Origin: Legionella shakespearei DSM 23087
Lineage (GTDB): Bacteria; Pseudomonadota; Gammaproteobacteria; Legionellales; Legionellaceae
Length of the DNA stretch: 42,452 nucleotides
Assembly (NCBI RefSeq): GCF_000373765.1
Contig: NZ_KB892399.1
Coordinates: 1 to 42,452 of the forward strand
Reading direction: 5' to 3'
Below are positions 1,545-28,126 of the stretch, piece after piece (positions within the stretch are counted from its first letter, which is position 1; every line of letters starts with the position of its first letter). The notes below the pieces were generated by a model. That model searched no databases and was not told the DNA's origin. It worked only from the letters and a program-made list of their open reading frames with translations. The translations under genes were made by a program, and so were the position numbers.

Positions 1545-1558
1545 TTCAGGGGTGTAAA

Positions 1559-2218: not shown

Positions 2219-2267
2219 TGTTCAGGGACAACAGTCTGAATGGAATGAATATAAGGAGAATCTGACA

Positions 2268-3320: not shown

Positions 3321-3329
3321 GGAGTCATT

Positions 3330-8162: not shown

Positions 8163-8165
8163 AAT

Positions 8166-8258
8166 GTAGCCCGTATTAGGCAATAGCCGTAATACGGGAG
8201 CGTCATACTCATGAACCCAGTATTTCCCGTATTACGGCTATCGCCTAATACGGGCTAC
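8166..8258. repeat. 34-bp inverted repeat after asnS
   Basis: Positions 8166-8199 pair with 8225-8258 with one mismatch (GTAGCCCGTATTAGGC ... arms). Each arm is itself partly self-complementary (CCCGTATTA/TAATACGGG). It occupies nearly the whole gap between the convergent asnS and the minus-strand gene ending at 8278, and may end transcription from both sides. It shares the outer GTAGCCCG bases with the 4964-5033 family but differs inside. Confidence 0.88.
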
Positions 8259-8277
8259 GAATCGGGCGTAAATGCCG

Positions 8278-8679
8278 TTACAACGATGCAACAGCAGGAC
8301 GATTTTCCTCACATTGACACTCTGCAATGGTTATTCCTGCTTCAGTAGATGCTGCCCTCGACAAAGGTTTATTTCTCGGAGTAAATAATCTTGGTGAAGT
8401 CAGTTCGGCACTTGGTATTGGAGCACCTGCATCTTTCTCATCATATTCTTTCTGATTAAAATCCAGACCAGGGATAAAACCTCTGGGAGATGTTGCTGTC
8501 TCAGGTTTAATCAAATCATCACCAACATCCCCTTCTAACGCCGAAGTTCTTGATAATGGATGAGAGCTTGATCTTTTTCTGCGTGAAAATAACATCATAA
8601 AGGAACTGCTGTTAGGCAGTGATGATGATTGTTCTTCAGTATCATTTTTCGCAATGGTTGAATCTTTCTTGGTTAACAT
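8278..8679 (-). CDS. Small Ser-rich, probably disordered protein
   Basis: Unrecognised. The 133 residues are rich in Ser, Glu, Asp and Pro, with a short basic-hydrophobic stretch MMLFSRRKRSSSHPLSR near residues 28-44 and no signal peptide or clear membrane segment. AAGGAG lies about 9 bp upstream of the ATG at 8679. It follows lolD by 24 bp on the same strand, so it probably shares the lolCD transcript, although nothing suggests a role in lipoprotein sorting. In Legionella such small disordered proteins are sometimes secreted effectors; that is only a possibility here. Confidence 0.6.
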   Translation of the reverse strand: MLTKKDSTIAKNDTEEQSSSLPNSSSFMMLFSRRKRSSSHPLSRTSALEGDVGDDLIKPETATSPRGFIPGLDFNQKEYDEKDAGAPIPSAELTSPRLFTPRNKPLSRAASTEAGITIAECQCEENRPAVASL

Positions 8680-8703
8680 CCTTATTACTCCTTGTTTTTA
8701 ATA

Positions 8704-9387
8704 CTAATCCTGTAGAGATAAAGTACCCTCATGCAACACAAACACTTTATCCATGCGTTGTGCAATTTGTGGATCATGAGTCACTATAACCAAAGCCGTA
8801 TTCATCTGTCTATTTAAATCGAGCATCAAATCAAAAACTTTGGATGCTGTGGTTTGATCCAGATTACCTGTAGGCTCATCAGCCAAAACGCAATGGGGCT
8901 GATGCACTAAAGCCCGCGCTATGGCTACTCTCTGGCGTTCTCCGCCAGATAATTGCGCCGGCTTATGTTCCTTTCTGTGTTGCAAACCGACATGTTCTAA
9001 CATGTCAGAAGCCTGTTGCTCGGCATTTTTTACCGCCATACCCGATAATAATAAAGGCATAGCCACATTTTCAACCGCTGTAAATTCTGGTAGCAAATGG
9101 TGAAACTGATACACAAATCCTAACCGTTGATTCCGTAATTGGCAACGTTGTTTTTCACTGATTTTTTGCCAATCCACATCACTGATGGTGACTTCCCCAC
9201 TGGTGGGTTTATCAAGGCCACCCATCAAATGCAATAAGGTACTTTTACCAGAACCGGATGGACCAATAATGGCAATCCTGTCCCCTTTGGCTATGGTTAA
9301 ATCAATTCCTTTTAATACTTCTACATTTGCAGAACCATCATTGTAGGATTTACATAATTTCTGACTGTTTAAAATGACATTACTCAT
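8704..9387 (-). CDS. lolD: Lipoprotein-releasing system ATP-binding protein LolD
   Basis: ATPase of the LolCDE complex, which extracts outer-membrane lipoproteins from the inner membrane and passes them to LolA. The 227 residues carry the ABC set: Walker [10 protein letters not shown] (42-50), Q-loop [17 protein letters not shown] (91-107), signature LSGGERQR (146-153), Walker [13 protein letters not shown] (166-177) and the switch His in VTHD. The short FQFHHLL-like region after the Q-loop is characteristic of LolD rather than MacB. Its start overlaps the lolC stop by 8 bp, indicating coupled translation. Confidence 0.94.
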
Positions 9388-10624
9388 AATGCAAAGCCTC
9401 CGCTATTACCGTTTTTGAGGCGCGCCAGGCGGGATAAATTGTCGCAGCAAAACTCATTAATAAAGCCATGGCACAAATCTGCCACAGATCACTGAATAAA
9501 ATTTCAGAGGGTAAATAATCCACAAAATAAATACTGGAAGATAAAACCTGCACATGAAACAGGGATTGCAGGTAATTCACTATAGCTGTGGCATTGCTGG
9601 CCAAAATAAGACCAGCGCCCAAACCAAGAGTAGTGCCGACAATTCCAACCATCATTCCTTGTACTATGAATACCCATAAAATAGTAGATGGTGTGGCACC
9701 TATAGTTCTTAGAATAGCTATTTCAGCCTGTTTGTCATTCACTACCATGACTAATGAAGACACCAGATTAAAGGCGGCGACAGCAATAATCAGCAGTAAA
9801 ATCATGAACATCATGGTTTTTTCCAGTTTCACCGCTTCGAAAAATGCACCAAATTGTTGTGTCCAGTTACCTACCTGATACTCTTCACCTAAAACATTGG
9901 ATATGCGTTCAGATAATTCAGGAGCCAGATAAACATTATTAATTTTCATTTTAACGCCGGTCACATCATCACCCAGCTGCAATAGCTTCTGTGCATCAGC
10001 GATGTTGATAAAGGCCAGTTTGGTATCAAAGTTAAAACCGGTTCCTGCAGAAAAAACACCAACCACATTGAAGCGTTTAAACCGAGGAATCATGCCCGCC
10101 GGCGTCACCGTTGCCTGAGGAATCATGATGGTCACTTTATCACCTAACATTACCCCAAGGCTGTCTGCCAGACCTTTGCCCAGGATAATCCCGAAATGCT
10201 TCAAATCGTTCATGGATCCTGCCAGCAATTTATCATTAAGATGAGTAACGGCCTCCTCTTTTTCAGGCAATACTCCTGTCAGGACTATAGGCAAAACCTG
10301 TCCCTCATGAGTCAACAAACCCTGGCCACCGACATAAGGGGCAATCGCTTTAATCTCGGGAATGCCTTGCAGTTTTTTTTCCAAATCAGGCCAATCTTTT
10401 AACTTTTCATTGAGCCCCGTCACTGTGATTTCAGGAGCCATACCAAAAAAGCGATTATGGATTTCATGATCAAAGCCATTCATCACTGACAGGACAGTAA
10501 CCAATACCATAACGCCCATGCCAATACCCAGCATAGAGCTTAAAGAGATAAAAGAAACAAAATGGTTCTTTTTCCGTGAACGGGTGTACCGCAACCCTAT
10601 AAAGAGTGCTAATGGTTTATACAT
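9380..10624 (-). CDS. lolC: Lipoprotein-releasing system permease LolC/LolE
   Basis: Membrane subunit of the lipoprotein-releasing ABC transporter. At 414 residues it has the LolC/E layout: one membrane helix near residues 25-50 ([25 protein letters not shown]), a large periplasmic domain, then three helices in the C-terminal 150 residues ([21 protein letters not shown], a [19 protein letters not shown] region and the last one before YPAWRASK). The [13 protein letters not shown] coupling segment near residue 300 is diagnostic. Only one permease gene is present, as in species with a single LolC/E-type protein. It is the first gene of a lolC-lolD-small-gene transcript and is divergent from the effector gene at 10779. 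Confidence 0.92.
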
Positions 10625-10720
10625 AGTCAGTATATTTTAAGTGAAAGTTCTATTGTAGAGAAAAACTGGGGCTGAGGATATAGCTAGAACATCACTCACA
10701 AATGCTCACGGTTTTAAAAC

Positions 10721-10753
10721 CTTAATAATCCCTTAATTAAAATAACTTATAAT
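10721..10753 (+). promoter_or_regulatory. Candidate PmrA box and -10 element
   Basis: CTTAAT at 10721-10726 and CTTAAT at 10732-10737 are separated by 5 bp, the arrangement of the PmrA response-regulator site. A perfect TATAAT follows at 10748-10753, 25 bp before the start codon. In Legionella and Coxiella PmrA sites in this position control many Dot/Icm effector genes. The match is seen in the sequence; the regulation is inferred. Confidence 0.7.
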
Positions 10754-10778
10754 CTTCTAATATATCATAGGAGTAATC

Positions 10779-13700
10779 ATGCCTTTTCCAAAACTGTCAG
10801 CCGTATTAAATAACTGCCCTTTACACGCTTTAACACCAGAAATAAAAGAAGAACTGTTAAAGTTCAGAGAGCATGCTGACTACGATAACAAGCACAATGC
10901 TGATTATTTGCTGTTGAAGGATAAATTTGCCGCTTTTTACGGCTTTAATCCCGCGGAATTCAGCTGGAAGCAGTTTGCTGATGTTTTGGGATCTTATAAT
11001 GCATTTGATACGCAAATTATTATGGGACCAGTTTTACGTTTGTTTATGAAAGACAAGATGATTAGCAATGATTTCATCGCTATCATCGCACAGGCTAATG
11101 AAGTCTCTCCCGAAGAGCTTATTAAAAATTATACCGACCTCAATCCAAAAACAGCTCGTTATGAGAGTTTGGCACCCGATGAATTATTTACCGATGTAGG
11201 GCAATATTTAGGTTTAAGCCTGCAATACACTCCCCAGGATGGCCCCAGCAGATTAATCGTAGCGCAAGATCCTGTAGCTCAGGTCAACATATTTCATAAC
11301 GGTGGAGCCGAGGGCGCCCAGACGGGTGGACATTGGGAAAGAACGGCCAAAGGAGAAGGCAGTGTTGATTGCCAAAATCGGGATGACACACAATTAAATC
11401 ACTTCTTGCCTCTATTAGGACAGGATTCAGCAGTTAACCCTTATGGTTTTGACTTATTAAAAAAACACGTTCAGCTGACAGCTCGCTCTCTTAAAGAGAA
11501 AAAGAATTTATATAAAGAATTCGCAGAATTAATTACCACTGCAAATCAGATCAGCCAATATCTGTTTAATATTGTTTCTGTTCCCCGCGAGCTTGCGATA
11601 AAACTGCTTGGTAGTGACTTAACAGCAGACGCAGCCCTATTTATTTCCGAATATAAATTTGAAGAAATTCATCCCAATCAGATTTATGAGCAATGGATTA
11701 AAGCAGACGCTTCCCAAAAACCAAAACTTGGAGAGTATGAGCAGTTGATCATGAATCGCCTGTTGATGCCAGTAATAGCAGCCAGTTCAGACGCCAATAC
11801 GCCCGAGAATAAAAGTGGTTTAACTCAGGCACAAACTGATTTTATCAGCCGCGAACACAAAGACAGCCGCCTTTTTGAAACCTGGTATGACAACGAAGAC
11901 GTATTACGTCTTGTATGGGCGATGCATCAAGACCTCCCTGAGTCCCAGAGAAATCAATTTATGGATCCCTATGTGTTTTTTGACACATATAATAGACACG
12001 ATATTGATGAAGAAATCGCACTGTGCGTCAGGCAATTAGTGGAGGCACCTGACAGACGTTATTACCCCTTTATCATAAAACCGGAAATTGGCAGTGCTCA
12101 TTACTATGCCGGAATCATTCGTAAAGACATAGTGAAGGGTGAACCCAGACTGACTACATTCTTATTTAACCCTACCGGCTCTCCCGAACAGGTGGTAAAA
12201 AAATTAAAACTGCCCAGCCATGTCCTGATAGGTGGTGAATCTTTAGTATTATCCCCTCATGAAGTGCAAACCAGGGATAAGGATAATGGAAGACTGGTTT
12301 CTTGCGGCCCTCTTTGTGTTGAATTTATTGGCTATGCGCTGCAAAATCCAGGCTGGATAGACAGTCTTGATGAGCGATTTGTATTACCTCCGAAACTGCA
12401 ACAAATCAAAGACAGTAACCTCGAAGAATATCAGGCACACATAACAGCATTGCGCGAACAGCATTATCAGGCTTTGGCAAAAGTTCCTGATGGGCAATTA
12501 TCAACAATTTTAGATGATCATTTAACATTCAGCACGTTCATTTCAGATGAATTAAAAGCAAAAGCTCGACGTAGACAAATTATAGATTTAAAGGATGATC
12601 CTTTTGATGAGGTTGATCCTGCTGATTATGAAGAAGATGGTGAAGATATTTTCAGCTTCAGCTCTGATGGAGAAAACGATCCTCCTCCTGAGCCTTCAGA
12701 TGATGAGGTAGATGAGCCACAAGTGGTTACAGACGTTTTACCTCAAACGGATATTCTTCTGGCAGAACAGGAAGAGCAGGCTCTTGAAGAAGCAGAACAT
12801 GCTACACGTTCCAGCTCCGATGAAGAAAACGTTCCTGTTCTCCCTGCTGAACCTTCAGATGATGGAATAGATGAGCAACAAGGGGTTATAGACGTTTTAC
12901 CTCAAACGGATATTCTTCAGGCAGAACAGGAAGAGCAAGCTCTTGAGGAAGCAGAGCACGTTGCACATTCCAGCTCCGATGAAGAAAATGCTCCTGTTCT
13001 CCTTGAACCTTCGGATGATGGGGTAGATGAGCCACAAACGGATGTTGACGTTTTACCTCAAACTGATGTCCTGCTGGCAGAACCAAACGAGGAAGTGGTT
13101 GAAGAAGTAGAGCATGTTGCAAGTTCCAGCTCTGATGTAGAGGACAATTCTACTCCCAGAGAACCTTCTAATCTGACAGCCACTGAAGAAAAAAAACACG
13201 ATGATGGTCATGAAGGTCTGGATAACTTACCAGGACCTGCAGCAATAAATCATCCGGCAACGAGCACACTTACAGAGGTCATAGAAACAGAACTTCTCGC
13301 AGAAGAAGAACAACCCACTGCATTCGCTGACAATGTGGTTACCCCGCCAGTTCTCGCAGAGTCTGATAAAGAAAGCTCAGAAGAAGAGCAACCTAATGCA
13401 TTATCTGACAATGTAGATGCCCAGCCAGTTCTTGCGGAGTCTGACGAAGAAAGCTCAGAAGAAGAGCAACCCGCCGCATTGGTTGACAATGTGGTTACCC
13501 AGCCAGTTCTTGCAGAGTCTGATAAAGAAAGCTCGGAAGAAGAGCAACCTGTTGCATTTGCTGAAGAGAAACCTTTTGTAGCAGAGAGAGCTAAGCCTGC
13601 TCTCTTGCAAGCAGAACAAAATTTTGAGAAGCAATTTAAGTTTGGTGCACTTGATAAAAAAATTGCGAATCTGTTGGCACGCTTGTCTGAAGCAAAGCTC

Positions 13701-14078
13701 AATAATGATACTGCTCAATATCATAACTTGAGAGAAGCTTATTTCGCGGCAAAAAATCTGAGAAGAGATTTAACAGCGGCAGGCGTAGTGTATTTCAATA
13801 ATCCTACTAAGGAACAATATCGCGAATTTAAAACATCATGTGATGGGTATTTAAAAACAGCTCATAAAACGCTGGATAAACACCGCGGTTGGTCAGAATT
13901 TCTCGTGAATCTTGCCATAGGCATATTTACTGCGGGATTAGGATTGTTGATCAAAGGGGGAATTAATCTCGCAAATAACCATTCGTTCTTCCATGTCCAT
14001 AAAACGGCTTCCGCCAAACTATTAGATGACATCGAAGAAAGTGTTAAAGACGCAAGCAAAATCACACCAAGCGCTTAA
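10779..14078 (+). CDS. Large candidate Dot/Icm effector with OTU-like and CE-clan-like cysteine-protease regions
   Basis: The 1099-residue protein has no signal peptide. Residues 8-195 open with NNCPLHALTP (Cys13) and end with an NIFHNGG...GGHWER strand (His185), the Cys-early/His-late order of OTU deubiquitinases. Residues about 425-525 show His441 (SAHYYAG), Asn464 (LFNPTG), Gln497 and Cys509 (SCGPLCVEF), the His-acid-Gln-Cys order and spacing of Ulp1/CE-clan proteases. Residues 638-790 hold three acidic repeats of 52-53 residues (EPSDD...DVLPQTD...SSSDEEN). Residues 842-930 hold 26-residue repeats (EEEQP...PVLAESD). A helical region (945-1035) and a hydrophobic GIFTAGLGLLIKGGINL segment near 1048-1064 close the protein. 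AGGAG lies about 5 bp before the ATG. Length, acidic low-complexity linker and upstream PmrA-like site favour a translocated effector. Catalytic activity is inferred from motifs alone. Confidence 0.8.
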   Translation: MPFPKLSAVLNNCPLHALTPEIKEELLKFREHADYDNKHNADYLLLKDKFAAFYGFNPAEFSWKQFADVLGSYNAFDTQIIMGPVLRLFMKDKMISNDFIAIIAQANEVSPEELIKNYTDLNPKTARYESLAPDELFTDVGQYLGLSLQYTPQDGPSRLIVAQDPVAQVNIFHNGGAEGAQTGGHWERTAKGEGSVDCQNRDDTQLNHFLPLLGQDSAVNPYGFDLLKKHVQLTARSLKEKKNLYKEFAELITTANQISQYLFNIVSVPRELAIKLLGSDLTADAALFISEYKFEEIHPNQIYEQWIKADASQKPKLGEYEQLIMNRLLMPVIAASSDANTPENKSGLTQAQTDFISREHKDSRLFETWYDNEDVLRLVWAMHQDLPESQRNQFMDPYVFFDTYNRHDIDEEIALCVRQLVEAPDRRYYPFIIKPEIGSAHYYAGIIRKDIVKGEPRLTTFLFNPTGSPEQVVKKLKLPSHVLIGGESLVLSPHEVQTRDKDNGRLVSCGPLCVEFIGYALQNPGWIDSLDERFVLPPKLQQIKDSNLEEYQAHITALREQHYQALAKVPDGQLSTILDDHLTFSTFISDELKAKARRRQIIDLKDDPFDEVDPADYEEDGEDIFSFSSDGENDPPPEPSDDEVDEPQVVTDVLPQTDILLAEQEEQALEEAEHATRSSSDEENVPVLPAEPSDDGIDEQQGVIDVLPQTDILQAEQEEQALEEAEHVAHSSSDEENAPVLLEPSDDGVDEPQTDVDVLPQTDVLLAEPNEEVVEEVEHVASSSSDVEDNSTPREPSNLTATEEKKHDDGHEGLDNLPGPAAINHPATSTLTEVIETELLAEEEQPTAFADNVVTPPVLAESDKESSEEEQPNALSDNVDAQPVLAESDEESSEEEQPAALVDNVVTQPVLAESDKESSEEEQPVAFAEEKPFVAERAKPALLQAEQNFEKQFKFGALDKKIANLLARLSEAKLNNDTAQYHNLREAYFAAKNLRRDLTAAGVVYFNNPTKEQYREFKTSCDGYLKTAHKTLDKHRGWSEFLVNLAIGIFTAGLGLLIKGGINLANNHSFFHVHKTASAKLLDDIEESVKDASKITPSA

Positions 14079-14107: not shown

Positions 14108-15238
14108 TCAAGTCACTAATGGAGGATACTCAATGTCTTCCGTTGTTTGTTTTCTGAACTTTTTTCCGCCTAGAAGAAGCGAAAACAGGGCAATGGCTAT
14201 GATAAATCCATGGGCGCCTGCTTTTAATTGACAGCGTTTTGATTGCAGGACGTCCTCACCCACCCTGAAATCCTTTCTCCAGCCTTTGAAGCGTCTGCTT
14301 TTGATTGCATCCCAAATTCCATGAGTGAGCATGGCTACTCCCAACATTTGCGGAGAAGACAATGGCGCTTGCATCACTTTTCTTTGAACAAAAAGATCAG
14401 CTAAATCATGTTGCGCTAATAAAAACAAACCACTGGTTGCACGAGGGTTGCATTCGATGATGTATAAACCGCTACTCGTGCGGATAAAATCAAAAGCAAT
14501 TTGCCCGGTAAAATTATATTTTCTGATAAAAGCCTCGCAGAAATGGCGAATATCCTCATCTTCAACCGGTTCAAAATAAATAGAAGCCGAATCATAAAGC
14601 CGATGTTTGGGCAAATAAGCCGTATGAGCGAGCAACTTCCCCTTAGAAGCAATACTGTAGCTGCAGTATTCTTTGCCTGGCAGATACTCCTGCATCAACC
14701 AGCCACCAGAATGAGATTTTTTCAATTGCTCAAACTGTATGGAGCTTATATTTTTATAACAAGCCGTACCGAATCGTGAATAAATCTGCTTGATCACTTT
14801 ATTCCGAGTTTCCGCAAAAGAGGTATCCGTAGTCAATAATCTGGTTTTAGGTATCTGTATTGGTAAACCCTCCACCAACTGCAATACCTCTTTTTTATTG
14901 TGCGCTGCAACCAACAACTCAAAATCATCACAAAATACTTCTGTCCCTTGAGGTAAATCATCCTTTATCTGCGCCACATAAAAAATTTCTTCGCACAAGG
15001 GAATAATTAAATCAATTTGATATGTAACACAAATCTCAATCAACTCTTCCTTAAATACTAAAGGTTCAAAGCGCGGTGAAGGTAAAAGACGGTACCCCCT
15101 GCTTCGTTTCGCAAAACGAACCAAAGGATATTTACAACTGTCCGCACAATAAACCTCATAACCACTGGCGCTCAGATTATTTAATAAAGTTAAGCCCACA
15201 GGAGTTCTTATACCGGTTAACAGGATTCGTTTGACCAT
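14108..15238 (-). CDS. ATP-grasp ligase-family protein
   Basis: A 376-residue carboxylate-amine/thiol ligase-type enzyme. The N-terminus is a Rossmann-like pre-ATP-grasp domain (RILLTGIRTPVGL, 4-16). The ATP-grasp fold follows, with a LMQEYLPGKEYCSYS strand (181-195), metal-binding Asp250 in IAFDFIR and the ECNPRATSG loop (262-270) where Glu262 and Asn264 bind Mg-ATP. The last 60 residues include a hydrophobic stretch, GFIIAIALFSLLLGG, near 344-358, which could anchor the protein to the membrane. ATP-grasp enzymes join an acid to an amine or other nucleophile via an acyl-phosphate. The substrate here is unknown. It is the last gene of the eight-gene run, 5 bp after the diiron-enzyme gene. Confidence 0.82.
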   Translation of the reverse strand: MVKRILLTGIRTPVGLTLLNNLSASGYEVYCADSCKYPLVRFAKRSRGYRLLPSPRFEPLVFKEELIEICVTYQIDLIIPLCEEIFYVAQIKDDLPQGTEVFCDDFELLVAAHNKKEVLQLVEGLPIQIPKTRLLTTDTSFAETRNKVIKQIYSRFGTACYKNISSIQFEQLKKSHSGGWLMQEYLPGKEYCSYSIASKGKLLAHTAYLPKHRLYDSASIYFEPVEDEDIRHFCEAFIRKYNFTGQIAFDFIRTSSGLYIIECNPRATSGLFLLAQHDLADLFVQRKVMQAPLSSPQMLGVAMLTHGIWDAIKSRRFKGWRKDFRVGEDVLQSKRCQLKAGAHGFIIAIALFSLLLGGKKFRKQTTEDIEYPPLVT

Positions 15239-15243
15239 AATCG

Positions 15244-15864
15244 TTATACCAAAGTAGCCACATGAATATCGAGCCAGAATTTCCTGGCTTTTTCGCCGCC
15301 TCTAATCACTTGCTCCACGTCATTACCCTGAGCTTCGTCACTTAATTCCTTTAAACGCTGCCCATGATCTTCATCAGCAACCAGATGAGTCATGATGAAT
15401 CTGGATTGTCCTGGCTGCAAAGCAAGTCTTGCAAAATGAGGCATGAGATAAGGCTTGATATGGCTGGCTATGTTTTCCAGGACATACATGGCACCCACAT
15501 ATTCAAACTGGTCATCAGGTGTAATACCCATCCAGTACTCATGAAAAGCCACAGGCTCAGGGGGTGAATCATCACTAGGCTCAGTTCCCATGTTTTGCAG
15601 ATCAGCCTGTGCTAATCGATAATGGTATTGTTCCTCTTCAGCAAGCTCGCTAAACACTTGTTTCAATTTGGGATGAAGGGCTTTTTCGGCGGCAAATTTC
15701 AATCGGTCACCACTTTTTAAAGTGTAATGAAACATCATATTCAAGAAACGCCGGTATTCGTCCATCCCTGAATCAACAAAATGGACACTTAAATCCTGCG
15801 CCATAGAGTGACACATTGCATCAAGTTTTTGAGTTGCCTGGCTGTGCTTTTTTTCATCTGTCAT
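15244..15864 (-). CDS. Haem-oxygenase-like diiron enzyme (HDO/CADD-TenA-like fold)
   Basis: The 206-residue protein is predicted all-helical. It carries the metal-site pattern of haem-oxygenase-like diiron oxidases and oxygenases: an acidic-His segment LAEEEQYHYRL (74-84, with His81), Glu130 in YVLENIASH, and the HLVADEDHGQRL helix (160-171) giving His160, Asp164 and His167. The H-xxx-D-xx-H spacing is the same as in Chlamydia CADD. Known members of this superfamily carry out varied O2 chemistry, including alkene formation from fatty acids (UndA), N-oxygenation (SznF) and C-C cleavage (BesC). The reaction here cannot be read from sequence. Its start overlaps the CapA-like stop by 4 bp. Confidence 0.78.
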   Translation of the reverse strand: MTDEKKHSQATQKLDAMCHSMAQDLSVHFVDSGMDEYRRFLNMMFHYTLKSGDRLKFAAEKALHPKLKQVFSELAEEEQYHYRLAQADLQNMGTEPSDDSPPEPVAFHEYWMGITPDDQFEYVGAMYVLENIASHIKPYLMPHFARLALQPGQSRFIMTHLVADEDHGQRLKELSDEAQGNDVEQVIRGGEKARKFWLDIHVATLV

Positions 15865-17111
15865 AATGTGGCCTTATCGTTAATGATGGGAAATAAATGG
15901 TGACAATGAGCTAATATCTGCGATTTTTTATTAAGATGCTTTTGAGGAAGTTCGGATAACAACATGACTCCTCTTTGCAGCATGCCGCCTTTTTCGGGAC
16001 GTCCGGTAAATACTGGAACTGGCATTGCCTTATCTACTGACCAACACTTCCCTGTATGGGTCAGGGATAACTGTAAAATAACGCCTGTTTTGCAGGCCAA
16101 GGTGGGCATAATCGATAAAAAATTACCTAAGGACCAGGCAATCATCCCCAGCTTTGCCGCCCCTTCTCTTTCAACTTGTAAAGGACAGGCCGGATCAAAA
16201 TGATTGATGGACACATAATCAATGGGTTGTAACACATGGGGTGAATGGCCAATGATGACATCAACGCCCAGTTCTATTAACGTCAGGGCATGGTCACGCT
16301 GCAATTGATCAGGCCAATATTCATATTCATAACCCCAATGAGGGTAAAAAATAATGAAATCACAATGCGCTTTTAAATGGTGCAACGTCTTTTTAATCCG
16401 CTCCCAATCCGGTGATTGATGGCTGTTACCAAAATGCTGGACAGGAATACTTTGTGGTGGCGCAGCCCCTGCTTTCAAATGATTGATACCAAAAGAGGCT
16501 GAAAAAACACCTATTGTTATCCCGTCTAACGATACGATTTGATAATCTTCATCAACCCCAGCTCCACCAATACAATGAAAACGAGCATCTTTTGCCAAAA
16601 TCGCCTGGCGAGTGGCCTCCAAACCCTCTACTCCCTGATCAAGAGCATGATTGTTACATAATGAAAACAGGTGTTGGCTTGATGCAGGCAGTCCTTGCCA
16701 ATTATCAAGGTACTCAACAGGTGCATTATAATGAAAGGTTTCATACACCAGTCGCGGAACCGGTTTATTGGGTGCAATAGGTGTTTCCATATTGTTAATG
16801 GTTAAAGAAGCCTTACTCAATACATCTTTTACTCCTGGTGAAAGGGCATTTTGCCATCCTTCACGAATCCACATGATGTCACCCACTGCAGCAATATTGA
16901 CATGACGCTCTGGGCAGCCCGTGTTGGCCGCAAGATAATTTACCGTCCATTGCCGCATGGCCTGATAATGCTGAAAGTCAGTTAGTGTAAGCGGATCACA
17001 TCTGTGCTTAAAACTCTTCCGAATGTACGCCCAGTTTAAATCCCAACGCCATAAAGGCCAGCGCTGGTATTCATAACGAATGTGCTGATACCACTTCATG
17101 TCTGGCGTCAT
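15861..17111 (-). CDS. CapA-family metallophosphoesterase-like protein
   Basis: A 416-residue member of the CapA/PgsA-like family (linked to capsule and poly-gamma-glutamate export). Family motifs are present: NIAAVGDIMW, INNMETP, CNNHALDQG, the YPHWGYEYEYWP segment and GHSPHVLQP, which together supply Asp, Asn and His ligands of a dinuclear metal site. No signal peptide is seen, unlike capsular CapA, so it may act in the cytosol on a pathway intermediate. The ATG at 17111 forms an ATGA overlap with the desaturase stop, so I prefer it; a longer frame from 17150 would overlap the desaturase by 40 bp. It lacks capsule genes around it and belongs to the biosynthetic operon. Confidence 0.82.
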   Translation of the reverse strand: MTPDMKWYQHIRYEYQRWPLWRWDLNWAYIRKSFKHRCDPLTLTDFQHYQAMRQWTVNYLAANTGCPERHVNIAAVGDIMWIREGWQNALSPGVKDVLSKASLTINNMETPIAPNKPVPRLVYETFHYNAPVEYLDNWQGLPASSQHLFSLCNNHALDQGVEGLEATRQAILAKDARFHCIGGAGVDEDYQIVSLDGITIGVFSASFGINHLKAGAAPPQSIPVQHFGNSHQSPDWERIKKTLHHLKAHCDFIIFYPHWGYEYEYWPDQLQRDHALTLIELGVDVIIGHSPHVLQPIDYVSINHFDPACPLQVEREGAAKLGMIAWSLGNFLSIMPTLACKTGVILQLSLTHTGKCWSVDKAMPVPVFTGRPEKGGMLQRGVMLLSELPQKHLNKKSQILAHCHHLFPIINDKATL

Positions 17112-18013
17112 AATAATACTTCCGGACCACGTCTGAATGCAGACCACCATATTTTTGCATAACCCGAATAAACCGGTGCTTTTTCCTTCGCTAACAAAGG
17201 CTCCAGTTCCTGATGGATTTGTTTTAAATTGTAACCGGGCACTCCGGGAAATAAATGGTGTTCAATATGATAATTCAACCCATTCCAGATATAAGTCGTG
17301 AAACGATTTGATTTCACAGTAGTTGCCGTATGCAAGGGATCGCCCTTCCACTGGTTGCAAAAATGATCCGCAACTGATTTAAGACCATTCCATGGAGAGG
17401 TAAGTAAAATGGGTAACAACCAGCACTGCACCATGTGTTGCTGCCAGTTCAACTGGCAACCCAGCCACCAGATGAAGCCTAAAACTGAAACAAGCACGGC
17501 AAGTTGCAGGCAATGCCTCAGGATTTGCTGGCGGTTATACTGTTGCAAAGGATAGAGTAAATTAAAATGGATTATGGCTAATGGTGCACCAATGAGAAAG
17601 ACCCCATAATACATGAAGTTCAGCTTCAGAGAGGCTTCACCGGTATTGTACGCATCAGGATCTTTCTCCGTCCTGTTATAGCGATGATGCAATACATGGC
17701 CATGACGTGCCGGCGCATAAAGCACCAGGAAAATAAAGGATAAAAAATGCCCGAAAAACGCATTCAACTTGCGACTGTTAAATAAATTGTAATGCCAGGC
17801 CTCATGAATGAGCTGGATTAGCCCATTGATAAAAAAACCTAACAGCAAGCCAACAATGAGTTTACCCGGCCAGGAAAGCTGTAAAATCAATGCGGCTCCC
17901 GCTGCCCAAATACTAAAAAGGGTGATTATTTTCACTACTACATAAGCTGTTCGCTTTTGCCTGGCTCGTTCAATCAAAGCAGGCGATATCCCCCAAAACC
18001 GATCTTTATCCAT
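17108..18013 (-). CDS. Membrane fatty acid desaturase / hydroxylase family protein
   Basis: A 301-residue integral membrane diiron enzyme with the three histidine boxes of fatty acid desaturases: HEAWH (70-74), HVLHH (106-110) and HIEHH (249-253), plus His217 in ADHFC. Hydrophobic helices lie around 28-48, 50-68, 85-102, 133-155 and 168-187. The NYHIEHHLFPGVPGYN ending is shared with acyl-lipid desaturases and related hydroxylases. It inserts a double bond or hydroxyl group into a lipid or acyl substrate; the position is unknown. The gap from the preceding methyltransferase gene is 11 bp. Confidence 0.85.
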   Translation of the reverse strand: MDKDRFWGISPALIERARQKRTAYVVVKIITLFSIWAAGAALILQLSWPGKLIVGLLLGFFINGLIQLIHEAWHYNLFNSRKLNAFFGHFLSFIFLVLYAPARHGHVLHHRYNRTEKDPDAYNTGEASLKLNFMYYGVFLIGAPLAIIHFNLLYPLQQYNRQQILRHCLQLAVLVSVLGFIWWLGCQLNWQQHMVQCWLLPILLTSPWNGLKSVADHFCNQWKGDPLHTATTVKSNRFTTYIWNGLNYHIEHHLFPGVPGYNLKQIHQELEPLLAKEKAPVYSGYAKIWWSAFRRGPEVLL

Positions 18014-18024
18014 AATGCAGACCT

Positions 18025-18654
18025 CTAGAAATAAACGTAACGTGGCACTCTTTTTTGATAGTGCAGATAGGACATACCAAAACGCTTGTGTAAGAATTGC
18101 TCTTCAATCAGCACCAATTGATGAATAAGAATAGAAATCAACAAAAGCGATAATAAAACAGGTATGGTACAAGCCCAACTTGAAACTACCCAGAGAAAGA
18201 GAGTAGAAAAGACATAAACCGGGTTTCTTGAATAGCGAAAAATTCCATGCTCCACCAGAGTGCTCTGCTGTTGCGATGTCTCACTTTCCTGACCGATACG
18301 AAAGGCACGTCCCATAGCAAATTGACAATAAAGCATGCCCAGAAGACAGATTGCAGCAAGAGTCAGCCCCCAAAGAGGTGACATATTTATAATGGGTTGG
18401 TTCATTGGCAGACTACGAAAAGAAGCTGAAGTCAGAAACAAAGTCATTAGCGCAAACCAGACAATTACCGGTAAAGCCAGCCATTGCGACATTTGCTGAT
18501 GCCGATTAGGTTGTTTTGTCTGATAGCAGATAAGCGGACTTTTGCCGTAACGAAGCCTGTAAAGCATTGACGAGCCGAATTGCCCAAAAAGCAAATGCAG
18601 GCTGATAAAAAGCAGATAAACATACGGATGCTGTAAAACTGAAAAATCACTCAT
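18025..18654 (-). CDS. Membrane methyltransferase, ICMT/PEMT-like
   Basis: A 209-residue polytopic protein with about five hydrophobic helices. Its C-terminal half carries the signature of isoprenylcysteine carboxyl and phospholipid methyltransferases: LVEHGIFRYSRNPVYV (usual form RHPxY; here R-N-P-x-Y), then a hydrophobic helix and LIEEQFLHKRFGMSYLHYQKRVPRYV, where the EE and YxxYxxxVPR residues bind SAM. Such enzymes methylate carboxyl or amino groups of membrane-embedded lipids. The start overlaps the acyltransferase stop by 4 bp (ATGA). Substrate is unknown. Confidence 0.82.
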   Translation of the reverse strand: MSDFSVLQHPYVYLLFISLHLLFGQFGSSMLYRLRYGKSPLICYQTKQPNRHQQMSQWLALPVIVWFALMTLFLTSASFRSLPMNQPIINMSPLWGLTLAAICLLGMLYCQFAMGRAFRIGQESETSQQQSTLVEHGIFRYSRNPVYVFSTLFLWVVSSWACTIPVLLSLLLISILIHQLVLIEEQFLHKRFGMSYLHYQKRVPRYVYF

Positions 18655-19952
18655 GTTACCACCCTGTCGATAATAGAATCCCTGGTTAAAAAATCAATAA
18701 TGTATTGGCTAAATTGTTGTTGCACCTCTGGTGGCCAAATACCCTCAAAACAACTGAGATTGATGTGCATGTTATCCTGATATATAAAGCCATTCACTCC
18801 CCAAACCGGGGTATGTGATCTGACATCGAGCAAATTAAAAGGTTGTGGTGGCGTGATAAGATGACTCACTTCCCCCATGAAGGTAATGACCAGACTACTG
18901 GAGCGATGGTTACCTAATAATTCTTGTGGTGCTGCGTGATGCATGCTGGACTGGCTGGCTATTTTGCTTGCCAACAGGCATTCCAGGGCATTGGCAATAT
19001 AGAGTTCGGAACGCAGTTGCTGTTTGAATTTAGCTTCTATTACCTGAATCATTCTTTGTGGATTGGCGTAAAACAGGGAGCGCATTTCCTGTAAATCAAA
19101 TTCCACAATTATTGCAGAACAGGCGTTGCCAATACTGGTAAATGATAAATTAAATGGTTGGCGAACATCCACTGGAACGCGAAGCCTGATGTTTTTGCTC
19201 ACATCCTGATCTTCCAGGCGGATGATTGCGGCTAAAATGGCTGCGTAAAATAAAGACGATGGTTTCAGTTCGGCTAACAGTCCCTTATTCACTTTAAAAG
19301 ATAAGAGCGTTGGTAAACCAATATGTTGTGCTTCATGTTTTAAAGGTGAAGCTCTTCTGGCCAATTGCCGGTTTTCACTTTTGGCTAATTTTAAGAATTG
19401 GCCTGGTTGTTTTAATATGCGCTTGATTATCATCCCATCCGTTAATTCAGGCTGGCTGATTGGTGTTGGATTTAATGGAGCAGAATGAAGCGCATGCTCC
19501 AGGATTTGCCAAAATCGTTTAATCAGTAAAATGACGGAATGCCCATCCCCTGCCCCGTGATGAAATTCAAGAGTGAGAAGAGAAGCCTCCTGACCATGAT
19601 CACTAACCGCACCATAGCTTAATCTGACAGGTAAATCGGCCAGCGAATTGTCACGGTTAGCGAGTATCTTTCTGATCCGCTCATTGGTAGAAAAAAGCTC
19701 CCTGTCATACGGCAGTTTGATTCGTGCCTGAATCGTAGCAAAGGATTGCTCATGCCACTGTTGTGCATCCTTAACCCAAAGGCTTCTCAGTCTTGGTGTT
19801 TCAAGAATAAGTTGCCTGAAACTCTGCACAAGCACTGTTTCATCTATGGGTTTATCAATGACCAGAAACAAACGATTCCAGATGGGAGCTATAGACCCAT
19901 CCAATTTCATTAATAATCTGTCGACAAAATTTGCTGTATAAGAATATGCCAT
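18651..19952 (-). CDS. Condensation-fold acyltransferase
   Basis: The 433-residue protein resembles the chloramphenicol-acetyltransferase-like fold of NRPS condensation domains, Pap acyltransferases and wax ester synthases. The HHGAGDG sequence (131-137 counted from this start) matches the HHxxxDG active site, with the second His as general base. No adenylation or carrier domain is attached, so it is a free-standing acyltransferase, presumably forming an ester or amide between an acyl thioester and an alcohol or amine. An in-frame ATG at 19964 also exists, but it abuts the AAGGA directly. The ATG at 19952 has more usual spacing. Either choice overlaps the upstream gene by 43-55 bp. Confidence 0.78.
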   Translation of the reverse strand: MAYSYTANFVDRLLMKLDGSIAPIWNRLFLVIDKPIDETVLVQSFRQLILETPRLRSLWVKDAQQWHEQSFATIQARIKLPYDRELFSTNERIRKILANRDNSLADLPVRLSYGAVSDHGQEASLLTLEFHHGAGDGHSVILLIKRFWQILEHALHSAPLNPTPISQPELTDGMIIKRILKQPGQFLKLAKSENRQLARRASPLKHEAQHIGLPTLLSFKVNKGLLAELKPSSLFYAAILAAIIRLEDQDVSKNIRLRVPVDVRQPFNLSFTSIGNACSAIIVEFDLQEMRSLFYANPQRMIQVIEAKFKQQLRSELYIANALECLLASKIASQSSMHHAAPQELLGNHRSSSLVITFMGEVSHLITPPQPFNLLDVRSHTPVWGVNGFIYQDNMHINLSCFEGIWPPEVQQQFSQYIIDFLTRDSIIDRVVT

Positions 19953-20956
19953 TGGGCCAACCATTCCTTCGTTGATTTACATGCGATCTTCATATCACTT
20001 AACCAATCCCCTAACTGGCTTTGATACGGTTTAATACGTTGAAATATCAGTTCATCATCCTGATAAATATGCGGCCTGATGCCGCAGGGGAAATAACCTT
20101 GTCGCATTAACAAGGGCGCTATATCTGCCATTAATGCATAGTCACTCATAGGAACATGAATCAAATCTGTTTTGCATAGAGCAAAGGGAATGTCTCGGAC
20201 TTTTTCGCTGGAATCCGGGTGAAAAATAATGCGTCTTCGTTGCAACTGAATGCATGGATTGTCTTCTATTAAATGCAACCCGAAGGAGCAGGATGGCGTA
20301 TGGGATGAACCACAAGGTTTCAATTGTACCGGTAATCCCAGCCTTGTATAGGCGTCCTGAATCCAGTTAAAAAACTCATGAGGAACATAGGCTGTTTTTA
20401 CCGGATAAATAAAGGGATTTAAAACGGTGGTCATAATTAAACTGTGCATTTGCCTGCTGTCTGTTTGTATCCCTTGTAATCGTTCATTTTCAACATAATT
20501 CATGATCACACCACATGCCTGAGCGCGCATGTATTTTTTGGCATAACGTTGCGCCAAAGGATGCCATGTAGTGCACTGCTGATGGATAAAACTGTATTTT
20601 TGTGCCAGGGACAGGAATGCATTTTGCCACTCCTGGTGAGTATCGGATACAGTTGCGGCCAGATTGGTGTATGGAAGACGGAACGAAACACCGGATTCAG
20701 CGTAATCGCCATCCTGTTCTTTCACCCAAAAACCACTGTGACTGACTAAACGACGATCCGAGGTAAATTCTCCATATGAAATCAATTTTCCACTTTGCAA
20801 TAATGCTGCAAATTCACCCTTGAGATACAAATTCTGATAAGAGTAGCTCTGGCCATAAACTGCGGTAAGCAATTCAATAAACTTTGCTTCATCCTGAGGG
20901 CGCAAGCGTCTGATGTAGGGTTTTAAAGTGTGCTGACATTCTGATGCAATGCTCAT
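19910..20956 (-). CDS. GNAT-like acyltransferase domain protein
   Basis: A 348-residue protein whose first half looks like a GNAT fold. It begins YIRRLRPQDEAKFIELLTAVYG (residue 14 onward), continues with a strand pair GKLISYGEFTSDRRLVSHSGFWV, then the ESGVSFRLPYTNLAATVSDTHQEW region and an RAQACGVIMNY segment near 140-155, consistent with a degenerate acetyl-CoA site. The C-terminal half is unassigned and may hold a second, related domain. It could acylate an amine or transfer an acyl group to a pathway intermediate. The assignment is moderate because the acetyl-CoA loop (Q/RxxGxG/A) is not clear. It lies 11 bp after the P450 gene. Confidence 0.6.
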   Translation of the reverse strand: MSIASECQHTLKPYIRRLRPQDEAKFIELLTAVYGQSYSYQNLYLKGEFAALLQSGKLISYGEFTSDRRLVSHSGFWVKEQDGDYAESGVSFRLPYTNLAATVSDTHQEWQNAFLSLAQKYSFIHQQCTTWHPLAQRYAKKYMRAQACGVIMNYVENERLQGIQTDSRQMHSLIMTTVLNPFIYPVKTAYVPHEFFNWIQDAYTRLGLPVQLKPCGSSHTPSCSFGLHLIEDNPCIQLQRRRIIFHPDSSEKVRDIPFALCKTDLIHVPMSDYALMADIAPLLMRQGYFPCGIRPHIYQDDELIFQRIKPYQSQLGDWLSDMKIACKSTKEWLAQWHILIQQILSTDY

Positions 20957-20967
20957 AAATACAACTC

Positions 20968-22293
20968 CTAAATCAGATTGGTGATTGACATAAAGACAGG
21001 AGATTGGGTCTGTAAGGACACCACATGTTTGGGTTGCGGTTCTTCACCGGGCAATAAATCCAAATCAAAATTTTGTAGCAGGTTAACCAGCATGGCTTTT
21101 AATTCCAGCATGGCCAGATTAAGGCCAATACAAATTCTGGGACCATTTAAAAAAGGCAAGAATGAGAATTTGTGGGGTAGTTTTTCGACGAATCGTTCGG
21201 GATCAAAACTATGGGGCTCTGACCAATAATCAGGGTTGCGGTGGATGCCGGCTATATTAAGAATGACAGTGGCCTTAGCAGGTATGGTATAACCCATCAC
21301 TTCATCCGTTTGAAGACAAACCCTGGGTACTGCCGGAAATGGTGGGTAAAGCCTTAAAACTTCTTTTATCAGGTGATCAAGTAAAGGCATTTTCATTAAA
21401 TGTTCCATAGTAACCAGGCCATCATGACATACCTGATTAATCTCTTCCCTGATCTGTTGCCGTATTGAAGGAAACTTTGAAAGTGTAATCAAAGTCCACA
21501 TCAGGGCTGTAGCAGTGGTCTCATGGCCGGCAAAAAGGATTAAGGCAGCTTCTGATATCAACTCTTTTGAAGAGAATAAAGCGTGGTTTTGCTGGTTTAA
21601 ATGCTGTTGCATTCTGGTGATGAAATTATCAGTGTCTAACCCCTGGCAGTTGGACATGATATTCATCAGTGTGCTGTTAAATTCTTTTTGTCTGCGATTA
21701 AATTTGGAACTTAATTTGGGAATAAAAGGTAATGCCCACAATTTACGCTGATTCACCAGCAAATTGGTGAAGTAATCAATATGGTGTGCCAGTTGCTCAA
21801 TTTGCCCTTGCCCGATGTTGGAACCGAACATCAGTTTGGTAATGACTTCCAAAGTCATTGAGGTACAGAACTGATTCATATTAATGCGCTTTTGTGCCTG
21901 TATTACATTAATGTAGTTTTGGGCAGTCTGATTAATGTCGTCAAACATGTTCTGAATCGACTGATGATGGAATAAGCCCGCCATCAGTTTGCGGTGTTCG
22001 TTCCAATAGTCCAGATCATTAGTGGTAAGAATATTCTTGCCAATAACGTGTTCAATCATGTTATAAAAATTATCTTTTGGGTAGTTGGCGATATTATCTT
22101 TAAGGATATGTTCTGCAATGTGCGGATCATTAACAAAAATAATTTTTTGCCAACCCAGTTTGTATTGGCAAACTGGTTCATCGGAAAGACTGCATAAAAA
22201 ATTGAAACTGTCAGAATTTAAGATTTTGAATAAATCTAAAAGCCTTAAACGACACTGGGGAATTATTTTTGCTTCTTCTTTTACAAAGTTCAT
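20968..22293 (-). CDS. Cytochrome P450
   Basis: Haem-thiolate monooxygenase of 441 residues. All core motifs are present: I-helix AGHETTATALMW (O2 activation), K-helix ExxR in EVLRLYPPFPAVPR, the FDPERF meander, and the haem-binding loop FLNGPRICIG with the Cys ligand at 388 of this start. It is closer to the long-chain/CYP4- or CYP102-like class than to camphor-type P450s by its motif text, which is inference. The ATG at 22293 gives MNFVKEEAK; ATGs at 22299 and 22329 are alternatives and none has a strong ribosome binding site. It is the first gene of the eight-gene operon. No ferredoxin or reductase gene is nearby, so electron partners must come from elsewhere. Confidence 0.92.
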   Translation of the reverse strand: MNFVKEEAKIIPQCRLRLLDLFKILNSDSFNFLCSLSDEPVCQYKLGWQKIIFVNDPHIAEHILKDNIANYPKDNFYNMIEHVIGKNILTTNDLDYWNEHRKLMAGLFHHQSIQNMFDDINQTAQNYINVIQAQKRINMNQFCTSMTLEVITKLMFGSNIGQGQIEQLAHHIDYFTNLLVNQRKLWALPFIPKLSSKFNRRQKEFNSTLMNIMSNCQGLDTDNFITRMQQHLNQQNHALFSSKELISEAALILFAGHETTATALMWTLITLSKFPSIRQQIREEINQVCHDGLVTMEHLMKMPLLDHLIKEVLRLYPPFPAVPRVCLQTDEVMGYTIPAKATVILNIAGIHRNPDYWSEPHSFDPERFVEKLPHKFSFLPFLNGPRICIGLNLAMLELKAMLVNLLQNFDLDLLPGEEPQPKHVVSLQTQSPVFMSITNLI

Positions 22294-22349
22294 ATGCATC
22301 CGACCACCAGAACAAATTAGAAACACCATAGATTAATTTCATTCAGGAT

Positions 22350-22488: not shown

Positions 22489-22658
22489 GTAGCCCGGTCT
22501 GCTCGCAGCCGGGATGGATTATGTAAGACTTTGATTTCGTTTCACTACATCAAGTCCACGTCGTCCTGAGCGCGTCTTTTTTGCGCGAAGGATCTCCTGA
22601 AAGTATGGTGCCAGTATTTGGAGATCCTTCGCGCAAAAAGACGTGCTCAGGACGACGT
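22489..22658. repeat. Repeat cluster: GTAGCCCGG half-site and GGAGATCC palindrome
   Basis: Positions 22489-22515 are one arm of the palindrome seen at 4964-5033. Positions 22558-22597 and 22620-22658 form a nearly perfect 39-40-bp inverted repeat of the family found at 299-337 and 28077-28126. Together they fill the 22330-22738 intergenic region between the P450 operon promoter and tRNA-Leu. I see no protein gene there. Confidence 0.85.
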
Positions 22659-22738
22659 GTTAATTGATTTCTTTTTGAAATTAGAGATAAGCTTTATAAA
22701 TAAGGATGGAATATATGTAAATCTGGTAAGATTATATT

Positions 22739-22826
22739 TGGTGCCCAGGGCCGGAATCGAACCGGCACGGACTTTTGGTCCGAGGGATTTTAAGTCCCTT
22801 GCGTCTACCTGTTTCGCCACCTGGGC
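22739..22826 (-). tRNA. tRNA-Leu (UAA)
   Basis: Read on the minus strand, the 88 bases begin GCCCAGG and end CCTGGGC-A-CCA, giving a full 7-bp acceptor stem with encoded CCA. The anticodon loop CTTAAAA gives UAA. A long variable arm, GGACCAAAAGTCC-like, is present, as expected for a class II tRNA, and the T arm contains GGTTCGATTCC. It is the last of three tRNA genes after pgsA, the same order as glyW-cysT-leuZ in E. coli. Confidence 0.97.
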
Positions 22827-22838
22827 AATTGACGATTT

Positions 22839-22912
22839 TGGAGGCTGAGGCCGGAATCGAACCGGCGTACACGGCTTTGCAGGCCGCTGCATGACCACTC
22901 TGCCACACAGCC
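22839..22912 (-). tRNA. tRNA-Cys (GCA)
   Basis: The 74-base minus-strand gene begins GGCTGTG and ends CTCAGCC-T-CCA, so the discriminator base is U, as required for Cys. The anticodon loop CTGCAAA gives GCA. The T arm GCCGGTTCGATTCCGGC is perfect. One T-T mismatch lies in the sixth acceptor pair. Confidence 0.97.
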
Positions 22913-22938
22913 CCATTTTTGTATCTCTTTAATGCTCT

Positions 22939-22966
22939 AAAAAAAAAGCGACTTTGTCGTCGCTTT
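22939..22966 (-). terminator. Rho-independent terminator-like hairpin between tRNA-Gly and tRNA-Cys
   Basis: On the minus strand, AAAGCGAC and GTCGCTTT form an 8-bp stem around a 6-base loop (GACAAA), followed by a run of Ts (22944 down to 22939). It lies just after tRNA-Gly and before tRNA-Cys. Confidence 0.75.
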
Positions 22967-22970
22967 AATT

Positions 22971-23046
<76 letters not shown>

Positions 23047-28076: not shown

Positions 28077-28126
28077 GAAGGATCTCCCAGTATTCAGGAG
28101 ATCCTTCGCTACGCTCAGGACGACGT
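28077..28126. repeat. GGAGATCC-family hairpin after rne
   Basis: GAAGGATCTCC (28077-28087) pairs with GGAGATCCTTC (28097-28107) around a 9-base loop. It is followed by CTACGCTCAGGACGACGT, which matches the end of the dispersed repeat at 299-337 with the middle shortened. It may end rne transcription, although no U-run is seen on the plus strand. Confidence 0.75.

What the first reader, a model, noticed from the sequence alone, without database searches (positions are those of the whole stretch)
14108..22293. Eight-gene biosynthetic operon without NRPS or PKS megasynthase
Seen: P450, GNAT-like, condensation-fold acyltransferase, ICMT-like methyltransferase, desaturase, CapA-like phosphoesterase, haem-oxygenase-like diiron enzyme and ATP-grasp ligase lie on one strand, joined by ATGA overlaps or gaps of 5-11 bp, with one larger overlap. 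Known: each family modifies or joins small molecules, and three of them (P450, desaturase, diiron enzyme) activate O2. Inference: the operon makes a modified acyl-amide or lipid-like metabolite from free intermediates, as no carrier protein or adenylation domain is present. I know of no described pathway with this set.
Basis: partly seen in the sequence, partly recalled or inferred. Interest (0 to 1): 0.88.

Follow-up and report, generated by a model that had tools for sequence, protein, structure and literature searches.

The report
Six-gene metabolite cassette shared across phyla
A Legionella operon carries a six-gene set of enzymes that is found in the same order in soil-dwelling predatory myxobacteria, and it probably builds an unknown fatty, amino-acid-derived small molecule without the usual giant assembly-line enzymes.

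Summary
Eight open genes lie on the minus strand (22329 to 14108), joined by overlaps or short gaps. The family calls are right, though 'GNAT' holds by fold only. They are not eight equal partners. Six (GNAT-fold, condensation-type, ICMT/PEMT methyltransferase, desaturase, CapA, haem-oxygenase-like diiron) form a fixed cassette: same order and strand in 16 of 21 loci found among named genomes, 20 of them Myxococcota; four more are cut by contig ends and one lacks the last two genes. In 195 Myxococcota genomes the condensation and desaturase genes occur together in 26 and apart in 1. The P450 accompanies the cassette only in Legionella; the ATP-grasp is linked only in this genome. The cassette is rare in Legionella (4 of 45 genomes) and absent from this site in the six relatives examined. 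Catalytic residues are invariant in the rows aligned. I infer an acylated, methylated, O2-modified amino-acid lipid; the product is untested. Six searches of the held papers showed no description of this set, in listings that were partly capped.

The parts
20968..22329 (-). Cytochrome P450, Legionella partner of the cassette (in-frame alternative start at 22293)
   Evidence: Pfam p450 E 3.9e-88; FLNGPRICIG, EVLR and AGHET present; best solved match LUTEIN DEFICIENT 5 (CYP97A3, name recalled) E 5.2e-42; next to the cassette in 4 of 4 Legionella carriers; no match in the 20 myxobacterial loci as far as their flanks are held
19910..20956 (-). GNAT-fold protein, core gene 1 (residues 13-180 GNAT; residues after about 187 a further alpha/beta half, barely tested)
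18651..19964 (-). Free-standing condensation-type enzyme, core gene 2 (start probably at 19952 or later)
   Evidence: Condensation Pfam in 12 of 16 aligned members at E 0.1 or better; HHxxxD invariant in 16 of 16; PDB profile hits to NRPS C domains (E 5e-5) and weakly PapA5 (E 0.008)
18025..18654 (-). ICMT/PEMT-type membrane methyltransferase, core gene 3
   Evidence: PEMT E 5.6e-11; R143 N144 P145 and E184 E185 invariant in 11 of 11
17108..18013 (-). Membrane fatty-acid-desaturase-family diiron oxygenase, core gene 4
   Evidence: FA_desaturase E 9.3e-39; His boxes invariant in 11 of 11; best NCBIfam model GntB Arg hydroxylase E 7.4e-16, 58 bits against a cut-off of 380
15861..17150 (-). CapA/PGA_cap calcineurin-like enzyme, core gene 5 (start probably 17111)
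   Evidence: PGA_cap E 2e-42; PDB profile hit to epimerase MslH E 3.2e-10; D91, E122, H168, D171, H305 invariant in 10 of 10
15244..15864 (-). [quoted passage not shown]
14108..15238 (-). ATP-grasp ligase, linked to the cassette only in this genome
   Evidence: ATP-grasp_3 E 1.9e-8; PRK06849-like, below that model's cut-off; 34-35% relatives elsewhere in G006, G021, G022, not next to their cassettes
22739..23046 (-). tRNA-Leu, tRNA-Cys, tRNA-Gly: the conserved edge of the site
   Evidence: ARAGORN; same trio next to pgsA in six relatives whose site lacks the cassette

Best explanation
It is a horizontally acquired, self-contained six-gene biosynthetic cassette, extended in Legionella by a P450 and, in this genome, an ATP-grasp ligase. 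Shown: the cassette is one conserved unit with intact active sites. Inferred: two acyl transfers build the scaffold. The GNAT-fold protein puts a fatty acyl chain (from primary-metabolism acyl-ACP or acyl-CoA) on an amine, probably of an amino acid, and the condensation-type enzyme makes a second ester or amide bond. The membrane methyltransferase then caps a carboxylate or amine. The membrane desaturase-family enzyme hydroxylates or desaturates the product. The CapA/MslH-type enzyme does acid/base chemistry next to the carboxylate (epimerisation or a hydrolysis). The HDO finishes with an O2-dependent oxidation at the amino-acid end. In Legionella the P450 adds a further oxidation. The product would be a methylated, oxidised lipoamino acid or aminolipid, made without carrier-bound assembly lines. 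Rough separate odds: conserved unit 0.95; small-molecule or lipid biosynthesis 0.85; acylated amino-acid-derived lipid 0.4.
For: All six genes in one order and strand in 16 of 21 loci, 4 more cut by contig ends. Condensation and desaturase genes both present in 26, condensation only in 1, desaturase only in 0, neither in 168 of 195 Myxococcota genomes; 20 of 20 loci read from the 26 carry the neighbouring core genes. A 31-nt GNAT/condensation overlap in 14 of 20 loci that hold both genes (starts picked by script). Pairwise distances of the six proteins correlate at 0.95-0.98 over 16 cassettes. Metal or catalytic residues invariant in the aligned rows of five families. Characterised relatives of several parts act on amino acids: MslH on a C-terminal Trp (passages of PMC10406935), the GntB model (weak), HDOs (passages of PMC13185094, and PMC13108848). 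Two acyltransferase-type folds plus two membrane enzymes point to a lipid-like product (inference).
Confidence: 0.45

Rival explanations
1. It is a membrane-lipid pathway rather than a secreted metabolite pathway: an aminolipid system that works like ornithine-lipid synthesis (N-acylation, O-acylation, headgroup hydroxylation, N-methylation), built from unrelated enzymes.
For: Division of labour matches OlsB/OlsA/OlsE/OlsG (passages of PMC11631085; PMC12493201). Two core enzymes are membrane proteins by family. No shared transporter or regulator was seen in the flanks sampled.
Against: No OlsB-type (PF13444) or PlsC-type hit in the eight proteins or the 14 GNAT-fold proteins. Patchy distribution (4 of 45 Legionella, 26 of 195 Myxococcota) is unlike a housekeeping lipid. 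CapA and HDO have no counterpart there.
Confidence: 0.25
2. It is a short-peptide pathway of the mangotoxin type: the ATP-grasp ligase joins amino acids and the HDO oxidises the peptide.
For: HDO and ATP-grasp adjacent here; such pairs are a recognised class, with at least 25 unique clusters reported (passages of PMC13185094). CapA relative MslH acts on a peptide C-terminus.
Against: The ATP-grasp is not part of the core: not linked in the other 3 Legionella cassettes, and a relative was found in only 1 of 7 Myxococcota genomes searched. The desaturase, methyltransferase and condensation enzyme are left unexplained.
Confidence: 0.12
3. It makes a hydrocarbon or terminal-alkene lipid: the HDO decarboxylates a fatty acid as UndA does, and the desaturase and P450 modify the chain.
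Against: UndA ranks below CADD and HrmI by fold. Condensation, GNAT-fold, methyltransferase and CapA enzymes have no role in such a pathway.
Confidence: 0.07
4. The genes are neighbours by accident in a variable island next to tRNA genes, without a shared pathway.
For: The site next to tRNA-Leu holds other ORFs in two relatives read for this, and no cassette gene in six.
Against: Same six genes, order and strand in Myxococcota and at other chromosomal places in G006 and G021.
Confidence: 0.03

Closest known systems
Mangotoxin operon mboABCDEF (HDO plus ATP-grasp ligases)
   Same: NRPS/PKS-free operon with an HDO; this genome's version also has an ATP-grasp ligase (passages)
   Different: The passages name an HDO, its redox partner and two ATP-grasp ligases, none of the other core families; ATP-grasp is not core here
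Ornithine-lipid and other aminolipid pathways (OlsBA, OlsE, OlsG)
   Same: Logic of two acyl transfers, hydroxylation and methylation on an amino acid (passages)
   Different: No OlsB- or OlsA-type Pfam family found
N-acyl histidines of Legionella pneumophila
   Same: An ATP-grasp enzyme is said to join fatty acid and amino acid in Legionella (passage of PMC11631085)
   Different: The primary paper is not held, so its genes were not compared; ATP-grasp is not core here; another review says no such ATP-grasp enzyme had been identified for aromatic acyl amino acids (passage of PMC8762209)
MslH lasso-peptide Trp epimerase (CapA/PGA_cap fold)
   Same: D11, E44, H88, D91, H295 have identical counterparts here (MslH numbers counted by hand from the printed alignment)
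   Different: His261 falls on Tyr/Phe in a weak stretch; no lasso peptide genes; profile E-value 3.2e-10
Free-standing NRPS condensation domains and PapA5
   Same: HHxxxD motif; profile matches to part of the domain
   Different: No carrier or adenylation domain nearby; Pfam score sub-threshold for the window protein

Membership tests
[quoted passage not shown]
   E78 H81 E130 H160 D164 H167 invariant in 10 of 10; the set is described in PMC13108848 (passages); which residues bind is my reading of the alignment
[quoted passage not shown]
   needs enzyme
Condensation-domain superfamily | HHxxxD(G) catalytic motif | tested here: met
   HHxxxD in 16 of 16; the next residue is Gly in 10, Ala in 6
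NRPS/PKS biosynthetic gene cluster | Adenylation, ketosynthase or carrier domains in the cluster | tested here: not met
   None in the eight proteins, nor in ten other window ORFs scanned or ten flank ORFs of L006; window ORFs from 29159 on were not scanned
GNAT acyltransferase | GNAT fold | tested here: met
GNAT acyltransferase | [QR]xxGx[GA] acyl-CoA loop after beta 4 (motif recalled) | tested here: not met
   9 of 14 have no match; 5 of 14 match only at residues 142, 146 or 328, which I judge not to be the expected place (strands)
MslH-type CapA epimerase | His88/Asp91 and His295/Asp11 catalytic pairs | tested here: met
   H168/D171 and H305/D91, 10 of 10; the H305 match lies in a weak second stretch (i-Evalue 0.037)
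MslH-type CapA epimerase | His261 metal-site residue | tested here: inconclusive
   Aligned position is Tyr or Phe in 10 of 10, but beside a gap in a weak stretch (i-Evalue 0.037)
Membrane fatty-acid desaturase family | Three His boxes | tested here: met
   HEAWH, HVLHH, HIEHH; their His invariant in 11 of 11
ICMT/PEMT methyltransferase | R-[HN]-P and EE motif region (recalled) | tested here: met
   R143 N144 P145 E184 E185 in 11 of 11
Ornithine-lipid (OlsBA) pathway | OlsB N-acyltransferase (PF13444) | tested here: not met
   No such hit in the eight proteins or the 14 GNAT-fold proteins
Mangotoxin-type HDO/ATP-grasp operon | HDO next to an ATP-grasp ligase as a conserved pair | tested here: not met
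   Adjacent in the window but unlinked in 3 of 3 other Legionella cassettes

The most novel reading that the evidence does not exclude
The six genes define an undescribed class of biosynthetic pathway: a carrier-free cassette in which a GNAT-fold protein and a lone condensation enzyme build an acylated amino-acid lipid that is then worked on by two different diiron oxygenases (plus a P450 in Legionella) and a CapA-type enzyme. It has been passed between predatory myxobacteria and amoeba-dwelling Legionella, or to both from a third party, two kinds of bacteria that meet the same prey and hosts.
Probability: 0.3. Interest if true: 0.75.

Novelty: new variant of a known kind. Interest (0 to 1): 0.6.

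Why it matters
Cluster-finding tools that look for assembly-line domains may pass over this set (inference; none was run). A compact six-gene unit kept in order across two phyla is a tractable orphan pathway, because each enzyme family is known but I saw no description of the combination in the paper listings. If it makes an acylated amino-acid lipid, it adds another route to such molecules and gives uncharacterised HDO, CapA and desaturase branches a shared substrate to test. It may also show a chemical trait common to myxobacteria and a few Legionella.

Tried and rejected
Eight genes as one unit: rejected, because ATP-grasp and P450 do not travel with the core outside Legionella. Plasmid or viral carriage: a viral-contig scan with the condensation alignment found no relative, and plasmids gave six desaturase-family matches of 25-35% identity. 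A wider spread in Proteobacteria: CapA profile in 1 of 369 class genomes at E 1e-60 and desaturase profile in 1 of 398 phylum genomes at E 1e-30, both being this genome; the other three Legionella carriers were evidently not drawn. Weak condensation hits in 11 further order genomes lie in open frames of 1,320-7,171 residues and were dropped as probable NRPS domains. RiPP reading: the core has no room for a precursor gene. Promoter-like sites 19 against 21.9 expected, terminator-like 12 against 7.8, uninformative. Flanking ORFs in five myxobacterial loci: 8 of 10 without a Pfam hit, many probably shadow frames, no shared neighbour seen. The protein search with the GNAT alignment gave only 8 hits under a candidate cap. 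Paper searches aimed at the cluster or its enzymes: searches returned no paper, two, longer lists of which 20, 15 and 10 were shown; only listings were seen except for the papers named here. antiSMASH-type tools were not run.

Row choices: one search used 16 cassettes, leaving out L003, L004, L028, L026 and L015 and every locus without all six genes; one search used 18 rows, leaving out L003, L004, L028, L018, L021, L024, L026 and L015 but keeping L020, which has four genes. Alignments A2 to A6 used 14, 10, 11, 10 and 11 rows picked from the loci to limit near-duplicates. In the counts, G631 has its two genes on different contigs, and G599 (condensation only) matches at 7836-9029, the coordinates of L021, whose contig ends at 9029, so its missing desaturase may be an assembly gap.

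Full report
What was claimed.

The core. A scan of the collection of 84,980 named species genomes with an alignment of condensation relatives gave 21 loci: Legionella santicrucis and 20 Myxococcota. In 16 of 21, all six genes GNAT-fold, condensation, methyltransferase, desaturase, CapA, HDO lie in this order on one strand. Four more (L018, L021, L024, L026) show the same order as far as the contig reaches. One (L020) has the first four genes and then an ORF on the other strand that looks MarR-like by eye, so CapA and HDO are missing there. A 31-nt GNAT/condensation overlap is found in 14 of the 20 loci that hold both genes, L006 included (start codons picked by script); in the window it is 55 or 43 nt. 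Distances between cassettes correlate for all pairs of the six proteins (Spearman 0.95-0.98, 16 cassettes); relatedness of the hosts contributes to this.

Co-occurrence. In 195 Myxococcota genomes, the desaturase profile (E 1e-60) hits 26, once each. The condensation profile (E 1e-40) hits the same 26 and one more, G599, whose match runs to position 409 of 435 and probably meets a contig end. So both 26, condensation only 1, desaturase only 0, neither 168. Of the 26, loci were read for 20, and 20 of 20 carry parts of the condensation, methyltransferase, CapA and HDO genes beside the desaturase (the GNAT-fold gene lies beyond those flanks).

Legionella. Four of 45 genus genomes carry the cassette: G000 (this one), G006, G021 and G022. 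The condensation gene of G021 is interrupted by a stop. In all four a P450 sits directly upstream, and it is the only match at E 1e-30 in G006, G021 and G022. No P450 match appeared in the 20 myxobacterial loci as far as their flanks are held, some of them short. The ATP-grasp gene is next to the cassette only here. Its 34-35% relatives in the other three lie elsewhere, and one of seven Myxococcota genomes has a relative at E 1e-5.

Acquisition. In six relatives (G003, G018, G044, G014, G033, G008) the matching site, between the MacB-like transporter genes and the tRNA-Leu/Cys/Gly-pgsA block, holds no cassette gene; five of the six keep part of the gene at 10779. In G006 pgsA lies at 0.68 Mb and the cassette at 3.45 Mb of a 4.04-Mb contig. 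The cassettes of G000 and G006 are 47% identical over 1,828 columns, whereas their pgsA proteins are 80% identical. The Legionella cassettes (three rows) group together at SH-aLRT 100, apart from the Myxococcota (quick tree, long branches, drawn with a midpoint root). The simplest reading is separate acquisitions from an unsampled source; an old cassette lost many times and diverging fast is not excluded. Proteins 56-90% identical to the condensation enzyme exist in the protein collection, without context here.

Mechanism. Two acyl-transfer folds, two membrane enzymes and several amino-acid-type relatives point to an acylated, methylated and oxidised amino-acid lipid. Only the unit and its intact active sites are shown; every step of the pathway is inferred. 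Rivals are an aminolipid membrane pathway, a mangotoxin-like peptide pathway, a hydrocarbon pathway and chance neighbours; the last is contradicted for the core.

Comparison with what is known. The Legionella secondary metabolism paper PMC5126622 (passages only) does not use the word desaturase in its main text, and the passages deal mainly with NRPS, PKS, siderophore and isonitrile clusters; its cluster table is in a supplement that I could not read. Mangotoxin (PMC13185094, passages) is the nearest operon in type. Aminolipid papers (PMC11631085, PMC12493201, passages) describe similar logic with other enzymes. Ten paper searches were run, six of them aimed at the cluster or its enzymes; none of the listings showed this gene set. 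The library is limited, three of those lists were longer than what was shown, and this is not proof that the set is undescribed.

Verdict. What is really there is a six-gene orphan cassette shared by Myxococcota and a few Legionella, joined in Legionella by a P450.

Noticed in passing
window 22557-22659 (also 299-312 and 28097-28110): A palindromic repeat between tRNA-Leu and the operon; its 14-base core occurs 550 times (285 + 265) in the genome with up to one mismatch against 0 for the reversed control, many of the listed places being inverted pairs about 39 nt apart. A very abundant REP- or MITE-like element.
   Followed up: partly
window 10779-14078 (+): A 1,099-residue protein without Pfam hit and with acidic repeats in its middle; three of six relatives keep its first third (52-54%) and five of six its end (38-48%). 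It looks like a secreted or effector-type protein; not studied.
   Followed up: no
L111 (G021:C1), about 9623-10866: The condensation gene of this Legionella cassette is interrupted, while its other core genes are detected nearly end to end, which suggests loss of the pathway there.
   Followed up: no
L020, 1808-6158: A Myxococcales MAG contig with only the first four core genes, followed by an ORF on the other strand that looks MarR-like by eye: a possible shorter version of the pathway.
   Followed up: partly
L011 (Archangium violaceum Cb vi76): Its cassette falls among Corallococcus cassettes on the tree, a hint of transfer among myxobacteria or of a mislabelled genome.
   Followed up: no
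window 471-4960 (+): An ordinary amino-acid catabolism block: Glu/Leu-type dehydrogenase, O-methyltransferase, HPPD, fumarylacetoacetase and a glutathione transferase-like protein.
   Followed up: no
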